Assembly (NCBI GenBank): GCA_023252195.1
Contig: JAHEXI010000014.1
Location: 1-64,000 of the forward strand
Origin: Pseudonocardiales bacterium
GTDB taxonomy: Bacteria > Actinomycetota > Actinomycetes > Mycobacteriales > Pseudonocardiaceae
DNA length: 64,000 nucleotides
Reading direction: 5' to 3'
Below are positions 1,453 to 22,109 of the stretch, piece after piece; the first letter of the stretch is position 1; the number at the start of each line of letters is the position of its first letter. A program made the position numbers and the translations under genes. The notes below the pieces were generated by a model that saw only the letters and a list, made by a program, of their open reading frames with translations, was not told the origin of the DNA and did no database searches.

Positions 1453-2338
1453 TCGCTGAGCAAGGATGGTCACGGCCGGACTTGCGATCGGCACGTTGAG
1501 CAACCAGTCGCACGTGCGCCGCCGATGAGATCGCAACTGCGGCACGTCATGCAATGGGATCGAACGTACGCTCATCGGCAGATGAGTACGTTGCGACGAC
1601 CGCGTGCGTCCGGAGTTCGACAGCCACGATCCGGGCCGCGAAGCCGACGGGGTCCACGAAGGTGCGCCTGGTCGCTACCTCTCATCGAGCCGCTCAACGG
1701 CCGAGGCGGATCCTCCAATAGGTGTGTCTTGAGTGATGAGTCGTGTTGACCGTGGTTGTGCCCCCGCTGTTGAGCCGCTGCAGGCGCCGACGGACGTGCA
1801 GATCCAGCTCACGCGACGGGTCCAGGATCGCTGCGAGGAGCGCGCCGAGGTCCGCAAAGCGAGCGACCTCGGCCTCAATCTCATGCTCTGTAGGGTGCCC
1901 GGCAGGATTCGAACCTGCGACGCACGGTTTAGGAAGAGCTGCGTCGTCGGCCTATAGGCCTGCTACCAGCGACTACAGTTCGAGAGACGTCGCACCACCC
2001 ATGTCGTGAGGCAGGATTGTTGCCAAGTTCGCACCACGATCCGCACCACGCCGTACCGCTGTGGCTTGGCCTTTGCATGGGCTTGGTGAGCAGTCCGCCG
2101 TGGGTGTGATGCCCTCGTGCTCGACCTCGACTGGCGCTATGGCCTGTGCCAGGTGGCTCGGATGCCGCTTCACTGTGGCTGCGCTGCCTTGGATGCCGGG
2201 ATGCTCACGACGTCAAACGGAAGGGCGCCATCGGGTAGTTGCAGCGCCGTGCCCGATGCCGGCAGCTAGTTGGCGATCCCTGACTGCTCGTTGGTGCCCG
2301 CGATCGGCAAGGTGGTTGGCGCGGACGGTGTCGTTACT
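1453..2338. other. Gene-free stretch holding a decayed attachment-site copy
   Basis: No coding region can be supported. Apart from the tRNA-tail repeat at 1896-1935 it carries short CGCACCAC motifs near 1990 and 2030-2050. Similar motifs occur beside the second tRNA-tail copy near 3690-3710, so the two sites share flanking sequence and may come from related elements. Confidence 0.5.
1896..1935 (-). repeat. Decayed copy of the tRNA-Arg(CCT) 3' part (third att-like site)
   Basis: Forty bases match the 3' half of the tRNA gene at 47770, covering acceptor, T-arm and part of the anticodon arm. Two bases are missing from the acceptor C-run. The match stops in the anticodon loop region, as it does in the better copy at 3751. 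It looks like an old or secondary attachment site left by tandem integration at the same tRNA. Confidence 0.7.
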
Positions 2339-2665
2339 TCAGGCGGCGCCGAAGGTCACGGCGGGAAGGTCGGTGGCGTCGGCTACCTCCAGACGCAGCT
2401 GCACGCCAAGCGCGTCCGCGAGACGCTCGAGTGTGGCAAAGGTTGGGGAGGTGCCTCCTGCTTCCAGCCGAGCGATGACTGAGGCGGTGGTGCCCATGCG
2501 CGTGGCGAGTTCCTTCTGCGTGAGACCAGCGGCCTTGCGGAGCGTGTGGGTAAGTATGCCGAATTCGTAGGAACGGCGGGTTTCCTCATAAGCGTCGCGG
2601 AACTCGTCAGCGTCTGCGTCGTCCCGTGCGGTGTAGATTTCTTCTATGTCTCGTCGACTGTTCAT
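2339..2665 (-). CDS. XRE-family antitoxin (HigA-like)
   Basis: 108 residues with a helix-turn-helix of the Cro/CI type in the middle (GLTQKELATRMGTTASVIA, about residues 48-66), as in HigA antitoxins. The product should bind and neutralise the toxin encoded just upstream and, with it, repress the operon through the palindrome at 3008-3021. Its ATG overlaps the toxin stop by four bases, so the two are translationally coupled. Toxin first and antitoxin second is the order of higBA operons. Complete, with no sign of decay. The partner is inferred from position and family. Confidence 0.85.
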   Translation of the reverse strand: MNSRRDIEEIYTARDDADADEFRDAYEETRRSYEFGILTHTLRKAAGLTQKELATRMGTTASVIARLEAGGTSPTFATLERLADALGVQLRLEVADATDLPAVTFGAA

Positions 2666-4473: not shown

Positions 4474-5106
4474 TCACTTGGCTGCCGCGGTGGACGCGTC
4501 TTCCTCGGGCTGGATGGCGTCGAGGTAGCGGTGCAGCGAGGTCTTGGGGATGCCGGTCTTGGCGGCGATCTGGCCGAGGCTGTGGCCCTGGGCCTTGAGC
4601 AGCCGGGCGTACTCGATCTTGTCGGCCGGGTGGGCGAGCGGGCGGCCGATGTGCCGGCCGGCGGCTTCGGCGACGGCGCGGGCGTGGGCGGCCCGTTCGG
4701 CGGTGTAAGTGCGCTCCATCTCGGCGAACAGAGCGAGGAGTAGGAACGCGATGCGGCCCATGCCTTCGTCGGTGGTGTTGATCGGCAGCGGGTCGGCGAG
4801 GGAGCGGACGCCGATGCCGCGCTCCGCCAGGTCGTGTACGAGGTTGAGGACCTCGCGCAGGTTCCGGCCAAGCCGGTCGAGGGTGTGCACAATGATGGTG
4901 TCGCCGGCGCGGGCGTAGCCGAGCAATGCGGCCAGGCCGGGACGGTCGACGGCGGTGCCGGTCTTCTTGTCGGTGTAGAGCCGATCGACCGCGAGCCCGG
5001 CGCCGGCGAGCGCGTGGAGCTGCCGCTCCAGGCTTTGTTTGGTGGTGGAGACGCGGGCGTAGCCGAGCTCCAGGCCGACCGCCGGGTGAGCGTGACCGGT
5101 CCCCAT
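4474..5106 (-). CDS. Serine recombinase (Tn3-type resolvase/invertase)
   Basis: 210 residues. The N-terminal catalytic domain opens with [16 protein letters not shown], in which the serine is the expected nucleophile. The conserved DRLGRN and [16 protein letters not shown] segments follow. A C-terminal helix-turn-helix is seen in [15 protein letters not shown]. Such enzymes resolve transposon cointegrates or invert short segments at res sites. Full length for the family, with ATG at 5104-5106. No complete Tn3 transposase is near; only a C-terminal scrap of one lies at 42860-43057. It could be a lone passenger of a lost transposon. Confidence 0.9.
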
Positions 5107-5643
5107 GCCCGAACCGTACCGGAAGTCGGCGCCGTAGCGCAGTTTCGGAACGGACGTTGTGGGACGAGCTCCGGAACGGAGAAGCGCTGCTATTTCGGCC
5201 GCGGCTGAGGCCTGGGTCGGGTGTTCCACTTCCACGAATGTGGAACAGCATGCCTCAGCAGATCGTGGCCCGCGACCGGATTTTCTGCAAGGGGTTAGAC
5301 GTAGTTGAGTAGCTCGGGCGGTGGTAGCCATCGACGGCTCCAGGCAGCGCGGGTCGTCGGCTGGGCCGGTTTCCGCGAGCCCGATCGCGGCGCGCTCGGA
5401 GGAGGAGAATTCGACGCAGGTCATCGATGATCTCGCGCGTCTGATCAACCCCATGGGGTGGTGGGCATCGTTGGCGTGTGCGCCGAGTAGGACGTGCATC
5501 CGGTCCTCGATGGGCACCCCGGTGGGAGCCTTACGGTGCCGTGCGCCACCTTGTTCTCCAAGGGGGTGTCGGTCGGCTTCGGCCGCACCCTCCTGACCTG
5601 GCCACGAGACGCTGTACACCTCTGTTGAGGAAGGAGTAGTTGC
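5107..5643. other. Non-coding stretch upstream of the resolvase and the decarboxylase
   Basis: No gene is supported. An inverted repeat GTTCCAC...GTGGAAC (5223-5246, ten-base centre) could be part of a resolvase recombination site or a regulator site. A minus-strand stretch around 5400-5500 faintly recalls a carboxymuconolactone decarboxylase end, but is too weak to call. AAGGAGTAG just before 5644 is the decarboxylase ribosome binding site. Confidence 0.4.
5223..5246. repeat. Inverted repeat upstream of the resolvase gene
   Basis: Seven-base perfect arms GTTCCAC/GTGGAAC separated by ten bases, about 120 bases upstream of the resolvase start. It may be a res subsite or an operator. The symmetry is seen; the role is inferred. 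Confidence 0.4.
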
Positions 5644-7293
5644 ATGTCCGACACTCCAGGGAGCACGAAGACGGTACGGGAGGTCACTTACCAGCTGCTC
5701 CGTCAGGTTGGTTTGACGACGATCTTCGGCAACGTTGGCTCGACCGAGGAGACGTTCCTGAAGAACTTCCCGTCCGACTTTCGCTACGTGTTGGCGCTGC
5801 AGGAAGCCTCGGTAATCGCAATTGCCGACGGCTTTGCGCAGGCTATGCGCCAACCAGCCCTGGTGAACGTCCACACCGGGGCTGGATTGGGCAACGCGAT
5901 GGGAAATCTCCTGACGGCATTTCAGAACAAGACGCCGCTCATCGTGACCGCCGGACAGCAAACGCGCGAGATGCTGTTGCTGGAGCCGTGGCTGACTAAT
6001 GTGGAGGCCACCACGCTGCCCCGTCCCTGGGTGAAATGGGCGTATGAGCCGGTGCGCGCCCAAGATGTGCCCACCGCCTTCATGCGTGCGATTGCCACCG
6101 CGCTCCAGCCGCCCTCAGGGCCGGTGTTTCTCTCACTCCCGCTTGATGACTGGGACCAGGACTGCGCCGGACCGGCTGTCGTGCGGACGGTCAGTAGACG
6201 GATCGCGCCGGATCCCACGCGCTTGCGCGACGTTGCCCAGGCGCTACGGGAAGCGTCGTCCCCGGTGCTGATCTATGGTGCCGCCCTCGCCCGGGGAAAC
6301 GGTTGGAGCCAAGCGGTTGCGCTCGCCGAGGCGCTCGGCGCGCCGGTCTGGGCCGCGCCCGCCTGCGAACGTGCACCGTTTCCCGAAGACCATCCGCTCT
6401 ACTGCGGCGGATTGCCGTTTGCCATCGGCCCACTGAGCACCAAGCTCCAGGGCCATGACCTCGCCCTAGTCATCGGCGCGCCGGTGTTCCGCTACTACCC
6501 GTATGTGCCGGGCCCGTATCTCCCACCCGGACTGCGGCTACTGCACATCTGCGATGATCCGAACGAAACCGCTCGTGCTCCGGTGGGCGACAGCATCCTC
6601 GGGGATCCCGTCCTGTCTGTGACTGCCCTGACAGACCTGCTCGTCGGGCACCAACCTGCGACCCGCAAACCGCCTGCGAAAACTGCCCATCGTATGGCGC
6701 CTCATCCAGGCCGGGCACAACAGCAAGCGCACGACGGCCGCCTGTCCGCCGCGCAGGTATTTGCCGCGCTCAATGAGATCCGGCCCGCACATGCTGTCCT
6801 GGTGGAGGAAACCCCGTCCAACCTCAGCGACCTGCACCAGGCGTGGCCGGTCACCGAGCCCGACACGTTCTACACATTTGCCAGTGGCGGCCTAGGCTGG
6901 AATCTCCCAGCGTCGGTGGGGATCGCCCTGGCCGAGCGCGACACCGGCCGCAACCGGCCCGTGATCGTGATCATCGGTGATGGATCGTTCCAGTACTCGG
7001 TTCAGTCAATCTGGAGCGCCGCGCAGCTACAGCTACCCATGCTCATCGTGGTCATGCGCAACGAGGAATACTGCATTCTCAAGTCGTTTGCTGTCCTCGA
7101 ACAGACACCCGGCGTTCCTGGTTTCGACATTCCCGGCATCGACATCGTGTCCCTCGCCAAGGGATATGGCTGCGACGCCGCCCGCCTCGACGATCTCGAC
7201 ACGATCAAAACGACCGCAGCCCAAGCGTGGACAAAAAACAAGCCAACAGTGCTGGAAATCCCGATCTCTCCCCAAGTCCCGCCGCTAATTTGA
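5644..7293 (+). CDS. Benzoylformate decarboxylase-like ThDP enzyme
   Basis: 549 residues, co-linear with benzoylformate decarboxylase (MdlC), which uses thiamin diphosphate to turn benzoylformate into benzaldehyde and CO2 in mandelate breakdown. Matching landmarks: [11 protein letters not shown] with Ser33, ALQEAS with Glu54, VNVHTGAG with His77, [11 protein letters not shown], and the cofactor motif starting GDGSFQYS. The second catalytic histidine of the Pseudomonas enzyme (His281, in FRYHQY) is a tyrosine here (Tyr285, in FRYYPY), so substrate or reaction may differ. A good site AAGGAGTAG precedes the ATG. No other mandelate gene is nearby; the convergent neighbour is a broken dehydrogenase. 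Confidence 0.85.
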
Positions 7294-10502: not shown

Positions 10503-11203
10503 ATGAACGTGTTACGTCGATGTGCCGCAGTTGCTTTCGCGGGTGCGATGTCACTTGCGCTGGTCGGTATGGCCTCTGGGGTGGCGGTGGCTGACCCGGC
10601 TCCGCCGCCAGTGGCATCGATTCCGCATCTGCGTGGGGTGTCGACGTCGGTGGCGTTGGATTCGGGGTTCGTTTCCGCGTTGAAGTCGCTGCAGATCACC
10701 CCGGCACCGTCGGGCACAGCGAGGATCAACAACGGGGTCGCGAGGTTCCCGATCACCGGGGGCAACGTGACGGTATACAAGCCCGGGCAGGTCGACCCCT
10801 ACGTCCAAGGCACGATCATCCACGAGGGCAGTGGGCTGAAGCTGACCAAGGGTGCCACCACCGTTCAGCTCGACAACTTCATCGTCGACCGGGCAAGCCG
10901 GCCATCCTGACCGGTCGGGTGCTGGCCAACGGCAAGGTTGTTGCCGCGCGCACCACACTGTTCGACCTCGACGGCTCCACCCTGCAGCCGATCACCACGA
11001 ACGCCCAGGCCGGCACGGCGACGTTGACCGGGACAACGGTGAAGCTGTCCGACGGCGCGGCCACCGCCCTCAACGGTGCGTTTAAGACCGACGCGCTCAA
11101 GGGCGGCACCACCATCGGCATCGCAACGATCGTGGTGGCGCTGCCGGGGCACATGAACCAGATGTCGGCGCATCTTCACGGATCTCGCCCTGGCTCCTGT
11201 TGA
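10503..11203 (+). pseudogene. Secreted protein gene broken by a frameshift
   Basis: The first frame (10503-10910) encodes a clear signal peptide (MNVLRRCAAVAFAGAMSLAL, with cleavage near VAVADP) and a beta-rich domain. At about 10890, where VDPGKPAIL is expected, one C is missing and the frame ends. The next frame continues ILTGRVLANGKVVAARTTLF and ends near 11203. The whole resembles the Hta-like or other beta-sandwich exported proteins of actinobacteria, but I cannot name it. One base would restore it, so it is a recent pseudogene or a sequencing error. Confidence 0.6.
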
Positions 11204-15380: not shown

Positions 15381-15875
15381 TTAATTTTGGGTAATAGTGG
15401 CCTCATCGGTGCTCCTTTTTCTGGGGCTTGCTGCACGCCGGGTCTTGGTGGCGACGCGGGCAAGCAAGGTGGTCGCGGAGATCCCGAACAGCGCCAGTGT
15501 CACCGCCAGCCAGTGCGGCAGGAATGGTTGCTCTGACAGTCCGGAGGCCAGGTGGAACTCGGTGGGCAGCCGCAGGATTAGCGGGGCCCACACCAGCAGC
15601 AGCAGTCCGGAGACCACGGCGGGGACTCGCAGGTGGTTGAGCCAGGGCACGCCGCCGACGGTGGCTAGCGTGGGATGGCGTCGTAGCAGCAGGACCAGCG
15701 CCGCGTCGAGCCCGGCATACAGCGGGAACAGCACCAGGTCGTGGACGACGGCGCTGCCGACAAACCAGGCGGCGATGCCGATCGGGTTGCCGGCCAGTAA
15801 CCGGATTGCGGCGTAGCCGGCGACGGCGAAGCTGGCCAGCAAGGCCAGCAGCTGGAGGGATTCGCGCCGGGTCAT
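15381..15875 (-). CDS. Four-helix membrane protein coupled to the cytochrome/molybdenum fusion
   Basis: 164 residues starting MTRRESLQLLALLASFAVAG, with about four transmembrane helices and a basic C-terminal tail. Its ATG overlaps the stop of the preceding oxidoreductase gene as ATGA, so the two are translationally coupled and probably work together. Not a recognised heme protein; histidines inside helices are few (HDLVLFP, HWLAVTL). It may be an assembly or membrane-anchor partner of the molybdenum enzyme. Confidence 0.65.
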   Translation of the reverse strand: MTRRESLQLLALLASFAVAGYAAIRLLAGNPIGIAAWFVGSAVVHDLVLFPLYAGLDAALVLLLRRHPTLATVGGVPWLNHLRVPAVVSGLLLLVWAPLILRLPTEFHLASGLSEQPFLPHWLAVTLALFGISATTLLARVATKTRRAASPRKRSTDEATITQN

Positions 15876-17278
15876 CGCGCTGCCCCGGCCTGGAAGGTCA
15901 GGCGGGTGACCCATTTGGTGTTGTGCACACCGGGCAGGGCCGGGACCGCGATTCGGGCCGGGAAGCCGTGATCAAGCGACAGGTCTGCGCCGTTGACCCG
16001 CAGCGCGAGCAGCGCGTCGGGCGCGTGCACTTGGTCGGCCGACAGGGTGGCCGCGCGGAAACCGCCTTGTTGGAGGGATTCGACCAACAACTCATCGCCG
16101 GGGCTGGCGCCGGCCATGCGGGCCAGGTCGGCGAGCCGGACCCCGGTCCAGGTCTGTTCGCCGGTGGACCAGCCCTCCACGCAGGCGATCGGCAACCGGG
16201 CGGTGTGCTGGGGCAGCGCCAGCAACTCGGTCCGCCACAGCGATCGGGACGCTGGGCCGTGCAGCGCCAGGCGCCAGGAGTCATCGACGGGGGTGATGCC
16301 GGCCATGGCGGCGGTCTTGTTGACCGGGAAATCATTCGGTCCGGATCCCAGTGCCAGACCGCGCGGGGCCAGCAGGGCAGTCGATCGGGCTGGGCCGCCG
16401 AGCGTCTGGCCGATGCTCAAGCCCAGCAGGGTCAGGGAGCTGAGTGCGACCATGCCCAGCGCGCCGCGGCGCGAGATGGTCGGCGGGGCCGGATCCGGTG
16501 AGACCAGGTGATCGGGATCCGGGGGTTCCGGGCGGGTGGCCGACAACGGGGTCCGCAGCTCCCGGATCAGGCTGCGCGACCGCAACGCGGTGACCAGGCG
16601 CCCCAGCCGAAACGCCACGTGCACCACGAACGCGGCGATAAACACCCAGGCCCCGTAGTAATGCGCCTGGTAAAACCCAAACGGCCAGGCGTAGTAGTAC
16701 TGAATGTTCATTACGCCGGTCACCAGCTCGAACACCGCGCCGCCCACCAGCAGCAACAATGAGCCGCGCTCGACGAGCTGGGTCAGTGAGCGCGCTGGAG
16801 GCCACTCGAACAGCTTGGGCAACACCGACCACAGCTTGGCCAGCACGATCGGGATGAGCACCAAGCCCAGGGTGACGTGCACCCCCTGGGTCACCCAGTA
16901 CAGCCACGACGGGCTCGCCGGCCAGGTCGGCAACCACGAACCCAGCAACCCCTTATCCGGTGTGGTGTCGTTGACCCGGGCCAGATTGGGGTCATACGCG
17001 GCATACGACGCCAGACCGGTGAGAAACATCAGCGTCATCCCGACCAGCAACACCACGCTGAACACCGCGGTCAGCCACGGGCCGCGCAACGGGCTCCGCC
17101 AAAAGCCAGGCCGGAACGGACCCCCCGGGCGACGCGCGGCCGCGTAACCGATCCACCGACCCAGCACGATGGTAAGCCGTCCCGGGTGTTCGTCGAGGTC
17201 CACGTTCTCCTTGTGGACAACCAACCGGGACTCGTCGACATAGTCGTCAGACGACGCTCGATCGTCGAACGATGTCAC
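15872..17278 (-). CDS. Membrane cytochrome b-like domain fused to sulfite-oxidase-type molybdenum domain
   Basis: 468 residues. The N-terminal half has four membrane helices (about 68-95, 128-150, 172-192, 205-228) with histidines 134, 206 and 220 able to bind heme, as in cytochrome b561-like proteins. After a linker, ISRRGALGMVALSSL looks like an internal anchor. The C-terminal domain (about 310-468) is the oxidoreductase molybdopterin-binding domain of the sulfite oxidase/YedY family. Cys366 in LPIACVEGWS is the expected molybdenum ligand and HNTKWVT the family end motif. A likely outward-facing reductase or oxidase linked to the quinone pool. AGGAGGG precedes the ATG by eight bases. Confidence 0.85.
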   Translation of the reverse strand: MTSFDDRASSDDYVDESRLVVHKENVDLDEHPGRLTIVLGRWIGYAAARRPGGPFRPGFWRSPLRGPWLTAVFSVVLLVGMTLMFLTGLASYAAYDPNLARVNDTTPDKGLLGSWLPTWPASPSWLYWVTQGVHVTLGLVLIPIVLAKLWSVLPKLFEWPPARSLTQLVERGSLLLLVGGAVFELVTGVMNIQYYYAWPFGFYQAHYYGAWVFIAAFVVHVAFRLGRLVTALRSRSLIRELRTPLSATRPEPPDPDHLVSPDPAPPTISRRGALGMVALSSLTLLGLSIGQTLGGPARSTALLAPRGLALGSGPNDFPVNKTAAMAGITPVDDSWRLALHGPASRSLWRTELLALPQHTARLPIACVEGWSTGEQTWTGVRLADLARMAGASPGDELLVESLQQGGFRAATLSADQVHAPDALLALRVNGADLSLDHGFPARIAVPALPGVHNTKWVTRLTFQAGAAR

Positions 17279-17376
17279 AGGCCCTCCTGTAGATGGTCAG
17301 GACACGGCGTCGACGCCTGGCCGGCTTGGTTCACCGGGTGGACTTGTGGCTACAGGATTGCCGGTGTCCGACGCGG

Positions 17377-18482: not shown

Positions 18483-19195
18483 TCAGGCGGGGGTCGATGA
18501 TGCCATGTTGGGGTCTTGTCCTCCAATCGTGGTGAGTCGGTGTTTTAGTCTGTAGCTTGGTCCGTTGATTGAAAGTACCTCGCAGTGGTGGAGTAGGCGG
18601 TCGAGTATTGCGGTGGCCAGGACGTCGTCACAGAAGACGTGGCCCCATTCGCTGAAGGCCTTGTTTGAGGTCAAAATAATAGGGCCGATCTCACATCTTT
18701 TCGAGATGACTTGGAAGACGAGGTTGGCGTCGGATCGGTCGAGTGGCAGGTATCCAACCTCATCGACCACGAGTACCGCGGGCCGGGTGTAGGTACGCAT
18801 CTTGCGGCTGAGTCGGCCGAGCTCGTCGGCGGCGCGAAGGTGACGGACCATATCGTCGAGGTTGGTGAAGTAGATCGAGTGCCCGGCCCGCATCTGGCCG
18901 CCAGCCTCGAGCAACTCGTGAAGCGAGCCGACAGTGAACAAGTGGGTTATCTCGATTTCCTCGATCTGATTATCGAAGAAGAACTCGGTATCCGCGATGG
19001 GCGCCGGTTCCGTGCGGCACTACGACTGTCCAAGCTGCCCCATCATAAAACCATCGACGAGTTCGAGTTCTCATTCCAGCCCGACCTGGACGTGCGGAAA
19101 GTTAAGGACCTGGCCAGCCTGTCGTTTATCGACACGAAAAGTAACGTGGCTCTCTTGGGTCCGCCCGGAGTGGGAAAGACTCACCTCGCGGTGGG
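18483..19195 (-). pseudogene. IS21-family istB ATPase with its N-terminal half inverted in place
   Basis: On the minus strand 18483 to about 18890 encodes the C-terminal half: RAGHSIYFTNLDDMVRHLRA, VLVVDEVGYLPLDRSDAN (Walker B) and PIILTSNKAFSEWG. On the plus strand about 18890-19195 encodes the N-terminal half: FLDLIIEEELGIRDGRRF, FEFSFQPDL and the Walker A ALLGPPGVGKTHLAV. Turning 18890-19195 around would join GKTHLAV directly to RAGHSIYF, which is the normal istB order. So one istB gene appears to have suffered a 305-bp internal inversion. IstB is the helper ATPase of IS21 transposition; this copy is dead. Confidence 0.75.
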
Positions 19196-19310
19196 CGACT
19201 ACCCGGCCTTGGCGGTCCTGGGGCAGCAGTTCTAACCGGAGGTGCGAAGGCCCCCAGCGGCCGCGACGCGCACCTCGGCCATACCCAGTCGGAGTCATGC
19301 CGGAGTCACC

Positions 19311-20303
19311 ATGACCACCACCATCACACCGATGTCCGAGACCGCCCTGGATACGGTGGCCGATCTGGCCGCTCAGTTGCGGGTGGATTCGATCCGCTCG
19401 TCGACCAGCGCCGGCTCGGGGCACCCCACCTCGAGCATGTCCGCGGCCGATCTGCTGGCTGTGCTGGTCACCCGGCATTTGCGTTACGACTGGGACGACC
19501 CGCGCTCGCTGGTCAACGACCATTGATCTTTTCTAAGGGGCACGCGTCCCCGCTGCTGTACGCGGTGTTCAAGGCTGTCGGGGTGGTCTCTGAGCAGGAG
19601 CTGATGACCGGCTACCGCCGCTTTGGGCAGCGCCTGGAGGGCCACCCCACCCCGATCCTGCCCTGGGTGGACGTGGCCACCGGCTCGCTGGGTCAGGGGC
19701 TACCCGACGGCGTCGGCGTGGCGCTGGCCGGTAAGTACCTGGAACAGCGGCCCTACCGGGTGTGGGTGCTGTGCGGTGACAGCGAACTGGCCGAAGGCTC
19801 CATCTGGGAGGCGCTGGACAAGGCCTCCTACTACCAGCTGTCCAACCTGATCGTGATGGTTGACGTCAACCGGCTGGGCCAACGCGGCCAGACCGATCTG
19901 GGTTGGAACGTGGACGCCTACGCCCGCCGCGTCGAGGCCTTCGGCGCCCGCGCGCTGGTCATCGACGGCCACGACCTGGCCGCCATCGACACCGCCCTGG
20001 CCACCGCCGAAGACAACACCGCCAGCGGGCAACCCACCGTGATCGTGGCCAAAACCATCAAGGGCCGCGGATTCTCCGAAGTCGAAGACAGCCCCGACTG
20101 GCACGGTAATCCCCTTCCCCCGGACATGGCCCAGCGGGCGATCACCGAGCTGGGCGGTGTGCGCAACCTGGTGCTGCGCGGCCCGCGTCCAGCCCCCGCT
20201 CCCGCCAGCCCAGAGGTCACCCCCCACGAAGCGGGCCAGCCCGCCAAGACCGATGCGGCAGCGCCGCGCTACGCCGTCGGTGACAAGGTGGCCACTCGCA
20301 AGC
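19311..20303 (+). pseudogene. Transketolase, N-terminal half, frameshifted and truncated
   Basis: Starts at ATG 19311. DTVADLAAQLRVDSIRSSTS and SGHPTSSMSAADLL are transketolase N-terminal motifs. One base is missing at about 19523 (VNDH then IFSKGHASPLLY). The thiamin-diphosphate site GDSELAEGSIWEAL and the GRGFSEVED segment follow. The reading stops at GDKVATRK, exactly where the 172-bp element begins, so the pyrimidine-binding and C-terminal domains are lost and are not found elsewhere in the window. Transketolase moves two-carbon units in the pentose phosphate pathway. This copy cannot. Confidence 0.85.
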
Positions 20304-20475
20304 GCACTGTTGCATTGAGGGATCGGCCCGCTCAAGCTGATCTCATCGGTCCGTCCAGAGGCCCTCGCCCAAGACTCAGATGCCCGATTTATCATAGTTA
20401 TCTACGGGGCTGGTAGGGCCTGTTTTGCTGCTTTGGGCCACGGCGGGTACGCCCTTTGCCTCAATGCAACAGTGC
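20304..20475. mobile_element. 172-bp IS6-end-like MITE, copy 1 (inverted relative to copy 2)
   Basis: Ends are GCACTGTTGCATTGAGGG and CCTCAATGCAACAGTGC, close to the GGCACTGTTGCAAA ends of IS6-family elements. The sequence is the reverse complement of 31117-31288 with no difference visible by eye. It separates the transketolase remnant from the 5' part of a GH15 gene. It has no coding capacity for a transposase. A related, diverged copy lies at 46109-46278. Confidence 0.9.
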
Positions 20476-21710
20476 CAGTTTTTGCGCCCGCCGCGGGTTT
20501 CCCAGATGCCTTCATCAGGCTGGTCCCAGTGGTCACAGACCCAGTTCACCAGGGCACAGACCCGGTCCCACAGGTCGCTGGAGATGGGCTGTCCCCACTT
20601 GTCGTACAGGTAGATCGAGTCGATCAGCGCGCCATAGATGTCCAGTTGCAGCTGGTCGACCGCGGCGTTGCCGACCCGAACCGGGCGCGAGCCCTGGTGT
20701 CCGGACCAGTGATCGAGGGTGCGTTCGGGCAGTTCAGTGCGCCCGTCGATGCCGTACATGATCTGCAATGGGCCCGTGGGGCCGTCGTCGCGCAGGGACA
20801 AGTTGGTCAAAAAGTTCATGAAGGCCTCGGCCTCGCCGGTAAACCCCAGCCGCAGCAACGCATAGACACAAAAAGCGGCATCGCGCAGCCATAGGTAGCG
20901 GTAGTCCCAGTTGCGCTCGCCGCCGAGTTGTTCGGGCAGGCTGGTCGTGGGCGCGGCCACGATCGCGCCGGTGGGGGCGTAGGTGAGCAGCTTGAGGGTC
21001 AACGCGGAGCGGTGCACCATCTCCCGCCACCGGCCGCGGTAGCGCGACGTGGACAGCCAGCGCCGCCAAAACGCCACCGTGGCGGCGAACTGCTGCTGTG
21101 CTTGGGCGTGCGGGCACTCCCGCGGCGCCACGTCGTCGTCGACGCGGTCCAGCGCGAACACGGCGGACTGGCCTTCGCTGAGTTTGAACTGCGCCCACGC
21201 ATCCGCTGCATCGCAGTCCAGCGGCATCGTGGCGGTCAGCGCCAGCGACAGCTCCGCGGACTCGAACACGACCAGGCCGTCATGGCGGCGCACCGTGTGT
21301 GGCGCCAGGCCATAGCCAAACCGGGGCGCCACCCGTATCCGAAACGGAATCGCGCCCCGCACGCACACCACACGCCGAATCAGCCGGTGCCGATCCACAT
21401 CACCGTTGTCGGCCAGGGGCATGAAGTCTTGAACCTCACCTATCCCGTCTTCGGTGAAAAACCGGGTGATCAGCACGTTGGTGTCGGGAAAGTAGAACTG
21501 CCTGGTCCGTGCCGCCACGTCAGCGGTCAGCTCAAATGATCCGCCCTGATCGGCGTCCAAGATCGCGCCGAACACGCTCGGGGCATCAAACGACGGGCAG
21601 CAATACCAGTCGATGGTGCCGTTGCTGCCTACCAGGGCGACCGTACGCAGATCACCGATCAGGCCGTGCTCAGAGATCGGCAGGTAACGACAGTTGGGCT
21701 CGTCAACCAT
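20476..21710 (-). pseudogene. GH15 family hydrolase (glucoamylase/trehalase-like), 5' part
   Basis: From the ATG at 21708-21710 (AGAGGTAGC upstream) the protein reads YLPISEHGLIGDLRTVALVG, GTIDWYCCPSFDAPSVFGAI, and ERNWDYRYLWLRDAAFCVYA. These are the landmarks of bacterial GH15 proteins that cleave alpha-glucans or trehalose with inversion. The frame runs without error to GGRKN, where the 172-bp element starts and adds a foreign tail. The missing C-terminal (alpha/alpha) barrel part is at 31289-31872 on the plus strand. Only rearrangement, not point mutation, has broken it. Confidence 0.9.
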
Positions 21711-22109
21711 TGCTACCTCTCTGCACCCTGCGGTCACCAGGCAGATCTCGTGCTCCGGTGGTCATTGTCCACCAGTCACGGACCGAACAGCAGTCCGGGA
21801 TTGCAGCTAGCGGTAGGGAAGGTGCCCGCAGACGGGGAAGACCGGCCTGCACCGAAGCGCCACCCTGGGTGACAGTGCCGAGCACTGAGCGGTCCATCAC
21901 ACCTGATCTTCAAGCGAAGGTGTCCTGGATAAATTATCGCAGTTGGTCTGTTCTCACCAGCTTTTCGCTATCGCCTGAGCAGCTTGTCGATCAAGTGCGT
22001 GACGCACAAACAGCGCTGGCAGTCGCGGAGCATTACATCGAGCAATGCTTGAAATCAGTGGATTGACGCTGGGAGGGCGTAGCTTCCCGGTGATCGAGTA
22101 GGTCTCATG
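21711..22109. other. No supportable gene
   Basis: About 400 bases between the GH15 start and the IS256 element. It holds the presumed GH15 promoter and the left edge of the transposon. Confidence 0.4.

What the first reader, a model, noticed from the sequence alone, without database searches (positions are those of the whole stretch)
15381..17278. Membrane cytochrome fused to a sulfite-oxidase-type molybdenum domain, plus a coupled membrane partner
One polypeptide joins a four-helix heme-binding membrane domain to a molybdopterin domain with the expected cysteine. The small four-helix gene follows with an ATGA overlap. Known YedY-type systems use separate catalytic and membrane subunits (MsrPQ). 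Here catalysis and membrane electron transfer are in one chain, with an extra partner of unknown type.
Basis: partly seen in the sequence, partly recalled or inferred. Interest (0 to 1): 0.65.

Follow-up and report, generated by a model that had tools for sequence, protein, structure and literature searches.

The report
Membrane molybdenum enzyme with obligate partner
The fused heme-and-molybdenum membrane enzyme belongs to a published family, but it always travels with a small undescribed membrane partner and usually sits among genes that build a sulfur-containing sugar cap on the cell surface, which suggests what it works on.

Summary
Window 17278-15872(-) encodes a 468-aa fusion and 15875-15381(-) a four-helix partner, with an ATGA overlap. 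The fusion is not new in kind: it is a Sco3746/Rv0218-type protein with a four-helix b-heme-type domain, an internal twin-arginine, a fifth Tat-type helix and an extracytoplasmic sulfite-oxidase-fold domain with CVEGWS (Tooke 2017, PMC5449189).

What I found beyond that: (1) the partner has no Pfam or NCBIfam family and is effectively obligate. It lies beside 121/121 fusion loci, 50/50 type I fusions in an order-wide sample, and, in divergent form, 55/55 type II loci. (2) Fusion loci recur beside homologues of the methylthioxylose (MTX) capping genes. DUF2064, about one per genome, lies within 10 kb of 30/50 type I and 46/51 type II fusions; presence over 200 genomes is 93/2/15/90.

Best explanation: a quinol-linked, MsrPQ-like thioether/sulfoxide oxidoreductase acting on methylthiopentose caps (MTX/MSX), with the partner as membrane subunit. 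The substrate is inferred, not shown. The window copy has lost the cluster context; a second copy in the genome keeps part of it.

The parts
15872..17278 (-). fusion gene: Sec/Tat-type membrane b-heme + molybdopterin oxidoreductase, 468 aa
   Evidence: ORF; PF00174; 112-sequence alignment; AlphaFold2 model
17283..17288 (-). AGGAGG Shine-Dalgarno-like site 4 bases before the GTG start
   Evidence: read by eye
16577..17080 (-). four-helix cytochrome-b-like domain (residues 67-234); invariant H134, H206, H220
   Evidence: best membrane-domain structural match 1kqf_C, FdnI, Z 8.8, rmsd 3.0, 145 aligned, below the level the tool calls safe for helical bundles
16400..16471 (-). twin-arginine R270-R271 and Tat-type TM helix 5 (residues 270-293)
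   Evidence: RR 112/112 type I and 55/55 type II; helix in model
15887..16291 (-). molybdopterin domain (residues 330-464), CVEGWS motif, Mo-ligand Cys366
   Evidence: PF00174 E 2.9e-24; sulfite oxidase fold Z 18.5; C366 112/112
15872..15875 (-). ATGA stop/start overlap of fusion and partner
15381..15875 (-). obligate four-helix partner, 164 aa; H45-D46-x4-P51 in helix 2; W37, D46, P51, D57, R83, P85 invariant in type I
   Evidence: adjacency
10572..11140 (+). frameshifted relative of a secreted protein that lies next to the fusion on Rhodococcus and Arthrobacter plasmids (possible remnant of the original neighbourhood)
   Evidence: two tblastn pieces in different frames, 53% and 44% identity

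Best explanation
The pair is a membrane oxidoreductase. The fusion is inserted by Sec (helices 1-4) and Tat (helix 5 with the folded molybdopterin domain), which places the Mo domain outside the cytoplasmic membrane. Electrons pass between the quinone pool and the Mo centre through one or two b hemes held by H134, H206 and H220. The partner is a constant second subunit of the membrane part (quinone site, heme-pocket completion or stabilisation). By fold, motif and gene company I think it acts MsrPQ-fashion on a thioether/sulfoxide pair: it reduces, or less likely makes, the S-oxide of 5-methylthiopentose caps (MTX and its sulfoxide MSX) on surface glycans. Shown by computation: architecture, conservation, partner linkage, gene neighbourhood. 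Shown by others for a relative (Sco3746): topology and Tat dependence. Inferred: hemes, Mo cofactor, quinone, substrate and direction. The window copy is a second copy away from the cluster; the genome's other copy keeps DUF2064 and methyltransferase neighbours.
For: Invariant H134/H206/H220/C366/H437/RR (shared with type II). Partner beside 121/121, 50/50 type I and 55/55 type II; type I and II partner profiles match at hhalign 98.8%, E 1e-16, against a best of E 0.006 in 20 column shuffles. CVExWS context shared with E. coli MsrP, hhalign E 2e-8, 26% identity. Gene company: Rhodococcus plasmid carries fusion-partner-methyltransferase-GTC-MTA phosphorylase-epimerase-GT2-DUF2064; Arthrobacter, M. 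abscessus and Kitasatospora plasmids similar. M. simulans has homologues of the GTC, GT2, DUF2064, epimerase and MTA phosphorylase (59/60/53/63/66% to Rhodococcus) in one locus beside menE. In M. tuberculosis MtxS (Rv0539) and MtxT (Rv0541c) make the MTX cap (figure legend of PMC8780516). DUF2064 within 10 kb of 30/50 and 46/51 fusions, presence 93/2/15/90; MtxT homologue within 10 kb of 27/50 and 34/51, presence 73/22/13/92. Within about 5 kb, at least two of six such gene kinds in 40/80 type I loci against 1/20 for other PF00174 loci. Both MTX and its sulfoxide are found on LAM (PMC8531672).
Against: No biochemistry. 24 of 80 named type I loci have none of the six gene kinds within about 5 kb; in the 5 named Mycobacterium loci (L110, L114, L121, L124, L125) the fusion is not beside them. 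The window copy has none of these genes nearby, and MTA phosphorylase was not found in this genome, although GT2, GT-C, epimerase and DUF2064 relatives were. 22 of 95 fusion-bearing genomes lack an MtxT homologue at E 1e-10. MsrA is cited as able to reduce the carbohydrate sulfoxide (title of Stalford 2009, in the reference list of PMC10503756), so another route exists. Presence counts are not corrected for phylogeny. The direction of the reaction is unknown.
Confidence: 0.45

Rival explanations
1. A general extracytoplasmic methionine-sulfoxide reductase: a one-chain functional counterpart of MsrPQ for exported proteins, with only incidental linkage to glycan genes.
For: MsrP-like CVExWS motif and fold; authors of PMC5449189 draw the MsrPQ comparison; mycobacterial and other loci lack glycan genes nearby.
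Against: Repeated linkage to, and co-occurrence with, methylthiopentose-type genes, which a housekeeping protein-repair enzyme would not predict; NCBIfam MsrP score 18.6 against cut-off 207.
Confidence: 0.25
2. It carries out a different redox step on the same surface glycan (for instance oxidation of the thioether to the sulfoxide, or oxidation of another sugar or lipid group), passing electrons to menaquinone.
For: Same neighbourhood evidence; the membrane domain resembles FdnI, which feeds electrons to menaquinone (FdnI role recalled); the cluster also holds a methyltransferase of unknown substrate.
Against: Thioether oxidation by menaquinone is uphill on recalled potentials (DMSO/DMS about +160 mV, menaquinone about -74 mV).
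Confidence: 0.18
3. A sulfite dehydrogenase/oxidase used for energy or detoxification.
For: Best solved-structure matches are sulfite oxidases; Rv0218 called 'a possible sulfite oxidase' in PMC2936551.
Against: No C-terminal dimerisation domain (Mo domain ends at 464 of 468); SoxC/SorT/SorA scores about a tenth or less of their cut-offs; CVExWS is MsrP-like; no sulfur-oxidation genes among the recurrent neighbours identified.
Confidence: 0.08

Closest known systems
Sco3746 family of dual Sec-Tat heme/MoCo membrane proteins (Tooke et al. 2017, PMC5449189; passages read)
   Same: Five TM helices, conserved His in the membrane part, RR before helix 5, C-terminal MoCo domain, actinobacterial spread
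   Different: That paper's main text holds no hit for a partner gene or operon (terms Sco3745, Sco3747, neighbour, small membrane, operon: 0); no substrate proposed there that I saw
Rv0218 of M. tuberculosis (PMC5800017, PMC2936551, PMC6299477; passages read), with Rv0219 next to it (recalled)
   Same: TM regions plus C-terminal molybdopterin domain; named Mycobacterium loci L110, L114, L121, L124, L125 have the same pair
   Different: Annotated only as a conserved TM protein or possible sulfite oxidase; no link to MTX seen in those passages
MsrPQ (E. coli, L226)
   Same: Extracytoplasmic MoCo enzyme fed through membrane heme b; CVExWS active-site context
   Different: Two polypeptides; MsrQ shows no detectable relation to the fusion or to the partner (hhalign probability 0.3% and 0.1%); MsrP C-terminal extension absent
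FdnI/cytochrome b561-type di-heme subunits
   Same: Four-helix bundle; H206/H220 spacing of 14 as in FdnI H155/H169 (FdnI numbers recalled); Z 8.8
   Different: No His at the start of helix 1 in type I (112/112 Arg), so the second heme would lack a ligand; Pfam score below cut-off
MtxS/MtxT methylthioxylose capping pathway of mycobacterial LAM (PMC8780516 legend read; Angala 2017 not held, recalled)
   Same: Fusion loci contain homologues of its GT2, GT-C, DUF2064, epimerase and MTA phosphorylase
   Different: No redox enzyme is described for it in what I read; MSX occurs in LAM (PMC8531672)

Membership tests
Sco3746-type dual Sec-Tat MoCo membrane protein | Five TM helices, RR directly before helix 5 | tested here: met
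   Model helices; RR 112/112 and 55/55
Sco3746-type dual Sec-Tat MoCo membrane protein | Conserved TM histidines for b heme | tested here: met
   H134, H206, H220 112/112; type II 54 of 54 ungapped
Sco3746-type dual Sec-Tat MoCo membrane protein | C-terminal MoCo-binding domain with Cys ligand | tested here: met
   PF00174 E 2.9e-24; C366 112/112
Sco3746-type dual Sec-Tat MoCo membrane protein | Insertion by both Sec and Tat | not testable with these tools
   Shown for Sco3746 only (PMC5449189)
MsrPQ | Separate MsrP and MsrQ chains; MsrP and MsrQ family models | tested here: not met
   One chain; MsrP model 18.6 bits against cut-off 207; MsrQ hhalign E 0.2 and 0.46
MsrPQ | MsrP-like active-site context around the Mo cysteine | tested here: met
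   CVEGWS against E. coli CVEAWS, hhalign E 2.3e-8
Sulfite oxidase/dehydrogenase (SUOX, SorA, SorT, SoxC) | C-terminal dimerisation domain and family score | tested here: not met
   Chain ends 4 residues after the Mo domain; SoxC 41, SorT 31 and SorA 28 bits against cut-offs 420, 570 and 600
Cytochrome b561/FdnI fold | Four-helix di-heme bundle | tested here: inconclusive
   1kqf_C Z 8.8, rmsd 3.0, 145 aligned; Pfam E 0.2
MTX capping pathway (as associated enzyme) | Genomic linkage and co-occurrence with MtxS/MtxT/DUF2064/MTA phosphorylase homologues | tested here: met
   Met for the family. Not met for the window copy itself
MTX capping pathway (as associated enzyme) | Acts on MTX/MSX | not testable with these tools
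   Needs chemistry

The most novel reading that the evidence does not exclude
The fusion plus its undescribed HDx4P partner is a dedicated, quinol-driven extracytoplasmic sulfoxide reductase for methylthiopentose caps on actinobacterial surface glycans: the redox arm of the MTX pathway, running from soil actinobacteria and their plasmids to Rv0218/Rv0219 of mycobacteria. It would set the MTX/MSX balance and make the cap a renewable antioxidant. The partner would be a new membrane electron-transfer subunit that defines the system.
Probability: 0.35. Interest if true: 0.85.

Novelty: new variant of a known kind. Interest (0 to 1): 0.58.

Why it matters
Rv0218-type enzymes have no known substrate that I found. 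One report says the gene was shown essential for growth in mouse spleen (PMC5800017, passage). The neighbourhood gives a specific, testable substrate class and names a partner that any purification or knock-out study would need to include. It would also answer what sets the thioether/sulfoxide state of a surface sugar that is used as a diagnostic epitope (MTX-LAM immunoassay, PMC6258851, title and passage).

Tried and rejected
Heme ligand supplied by the partner. Type II fusions often have a His at the start of helix 1 (38/55) or helix 3 (34/55); type I has Arg at the first site (112/112), while its partner often has a His at position 8 (96/113). As a trans-ligand idea this fails as a rule: the window partner has Gln8, and 8 of the 112 type I pairs have none of these three His. 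Partner H45 is not invariant either (104/113; W in six, V in two, N in one; 51/55 in type II).

Known fold for the partner: Foldseek gave 3 hits, none with E<=0.001; VIA-align top Z 5.9, to a long-helix adhesin; sequence profile against PDB best E 0.58. The model is moderate, so a known fold is not excluded.

Partner found without a fusion (order sample): 58 of 61 partner places lie beside a fusion. Of the other three, G025 ends at a contig edge (L040), G096 is a broken remnant with no fusion on the 3.5 kb taken (L224), and G195 is not supported by the profile.

MTA phosphorylase in the own genome: not found. Papers linking Rv0218 to MTX: the 8 Rv0218 papers and the 16 listed of 17 methylthioxylose papers share none. 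Searches for Sco3746, Rv0219, Rv0218/Rv0219/lipC/molybdopterin and Rv0541c/Rv0539/MtxT showed no such link in titles or abstract starts. Searches (sulfite oxidase with cytochrome b terms) gave 0 and 1 papers. Angala 2017 was not held.

Rows dropped: type I/II counts use listed places with good membrane-plus-Mo matches (50 and 51); Mo-domain-only hits of E about 1e-19 or weaker were left out, and the list was itself cut. The 20 control loci were picked by me from the listed Mo-only hits, skipping one near a contig end (G060) and others further down; one (L246) is only 6.3 kb long. The one positive control locus (L259, genome without the fusion) is itself an MTX-like cluster. Type II partners were taken as the best-scoring ORF on the fusion's strand; E-values run from 1e-13 to 2.1, and four (L188, L197, L206, L180) are not significant singly. 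One notebook entry says 15 genomes for the phylum comparison; on recount it is 16, as given in the full report.

Full report
Observation. On the minus strand of the window, 17278-15872 encodes a 468-aa protein and 15875-15381 a 164-aa protein, overlapping by ATGA. The first carries a molybdopterin domain (PF00174, residues 330-464, E 2.9e-24). The N-terminal half is not called by Pfam above cut-off (cytochrome b561 E 0.2). The AlphaFold2 model has five long helices, and residues R270-R271 stand directly before the fifth. VIA-align places residues 308-466 on sulfite oxidases (Z 18.5, rmsd 2.7, 156 aligned) and residues 65-234 on FdnI, the cytochrome subunit of formate dehydrogenase N (Z 8.8, rmsd 3.0, 145 aligned). 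The FdnI match is the best one in the membrane part but is weak by the tool's own standard for helical bundles.

What the fusion is. In 112 distinct type I homologues (54-85% identical to the window protein where measured), H134, H206, H220, C366, H437 and R270-R271 are invariant. A more distant type II set of 55 loci keeps the same three TM histidines (54 of 54 ungapped) and RR (55/55). Tooke et al. 2017 (PMC5449189; abstract, start of the introduction and passages read) describe exactly this architecture for S. coelicolor Sco3746. They show five TMDs and Tat dependence with reporter fusions and compare it with MsrP/MsrQ. Rv0218 of M. tuberculosis is noted as TM segments plus a molybdopterin domain (PMC5800017) and as 'a possible sulfite oxidase' (PMC2936551). 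So the fusion itself is known. By motif the Mo domain is nearer MsrP (CVEGWS against CVEAWS, hhalign E 2.3e-8) than sulfite oxidases, and it lacks their C-terminal domain. The membrane part is not detectably MsrQ.

The partner. In the distinct set the intergenic distance is mostly -4 to +11 bases. In a 200-genome sample of the order, 50 of 50 type I fusions have the partner adjacent, and 58 of 61 partner places are beside a fusion; the three exceptions are a contig end, a broken remnant and a false hit. In a phylum sample of 296 genomes, the 16 genomes with strong type I fusion matches are, by my reading of the lists, the same 16 with strong partner matches. All 55 type II loci examined have a same-strand ORF in the same place. 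Type I and II partner profiles are homologous (hhalign 98.8%, E 9.9e-17; best of 20 column-shuffled controls E 0.006). Their shared signature is H-D-x4-P in helix 2 (D 113/113 and 54/55, P 113/113 and 53/55, H 104/113 and 51/55). There is no Pfam or NCBIfam family and no recognisable structure. On plasmids it is annotated 'hypothetical protein'.

Gene company. Clustering the flanks of the 80 named loci showed recurring glycosyltransferases, a DUF2064/TIGR04282 protein, a methyltransferase and an epimerase. On a Rhodococcus plasmid the order is fusion, partner, methyltransferase, a 453-aa membrane protein, S-methyl-5'-thioadenosine phosphorylase, epimerase, GT2, DUF2064. Plasmids of Arthrobacter, M. 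abscessus bolletii and Kitasatospora with type II fusions show the same kinds of genes. In M. simulans five of these (453-aa membrane protein, GT2, DUF2064, epimerase, MTA phosphorylase) have 53-66% identical homologues in one locus next to menE. I identify that locus with M. tuberculosis Rv0535-Rv0541c by recalled gene order. PMC8780516 (figure legend) states that MtxS (Rv0539) makes MTX-P-C50 and MtxT (Rv0541c) transfers MTX to LAM caps. PMC8531672 (passages) reports both MTX and its sulfoxide MSX on LAM of four strains.

Numbers. DUF2064 occurs about once per genome where present. It lies within 10 kb of 30/50 type I fusions (median 3.7 kb) and 46/51 type II fusions (median 0.9 kb). Across 200 genomes: both 93, fusion only 2, DUF2064 only 15, neither 90 (Fisher 9e-38, not corrected for shared ancestry). 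By my reading, the close pairing is found in 13 of the 15 families that have a fusion in the sample. The MtxT homologue is within 10 kb of 27/50 and 34/51, only 67-186 bases away in five genomes, and the presence table is 73/22/13/92. Of six gene kinds within about 5 kb, at least two are present in 40/80 type I loci and at least one in 56/80; among 20 loci of other PF00174 enzymes, 1. That one, L259, is a genome without the fusion in which a full sulfite-oxidase-type protein sits in an MTX-like cluster.

The window copy. The genome has two pairs, 78-81% identical. The other (G000:C2:12799-14566) keeps DUF2064 and the methyltransferase just upstream and a two-component system downstream. The genome's only DUF2064 is there; GT-C and epimerase relatives lie together on C34 and the GT2 on C44; an MTA phosphorylase relative was not found. 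The window copy has none of these nearby, only a frameshifted relative of the secreted protein that precedes the fusion on the Rhodococcus and Arthrobacter plasmids, among other gene remnants. It is closer to two other copies from related MAGs (85%; L048, L053) than to its own paralogue, so the two copies may be separate lineages rather than a recent duplication.

Mechanism and judgement. The most economical reading is MsrPQ-like chemistry in one chain with a constant membrane partner, directed at the thioether/sulfoxide of a methylthiopentose cap. Reduction by menaquinol is favourable on recalled potentials; oxidation is not. The substrate remains an inference from gene company, and the fusions in the five named Mycobacterium loci are unlinked to the MTX locus. 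I therefore put 0.45 on the full statement, and much more on the architecture and on the partner being a constant component.

Noticed in passing
window 10572-11140 (+): Frameshifted relative of a secreted Ala/Ser-rich protein found beside the fusion on Rhodococcus and Arthrobacter plasmids and in 8 other fusion loci (L010, L011, L013, L015, L018, L019, L020, L030); no Pfam family for the Rhodococcus protein.
   Followed up: partly
window 18483-20416: IS21 IstB-like ORF (18483-18941, -; matches only the C-terminal half of the model) and a transketolase N-terminal domain match over 19523-20416: the flank of the pair looks like a patch of mobile-element and gene remnants.
   Followed up: no
window 20376-21737 (-): GH15/trehalase-like gene matching only the first part of the GH15 model; a GH15 cluster is also present in 16 of the 80 named type I loci, usually just after the fusion.
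   Followed up: no
L259 (genome G105), 4729-6276 (+): In a genome without the fusion, a 516-aa sulfite-oxidase-type protein with a TM N-terminus and a C-terminal extension sits beside GT2/DUF2064/MTA phosphorylase: possible displacement of the fusion by another member of the superfamily.
   Followed up: partly
L224 (genome G096), 1963-2373 (+): Orphan, shortened partner remnant next to ribosomal-protein and ssb-like genes with no fusion on the stretch taken.
   Followed up: partly
L010, L011, L013, L015, L018, L019 partners: The otherwise conserved H45 of the partner is Trp in six related genomes, while D46 stays invariant.
   Followed up: no
type II fusions: Type II fusions have an almost invariant His at the outer end of helix 1 (52/55) where type I has an invariant Tyr: possible different heme ligation between the two subfamilies.
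   Followed up: no
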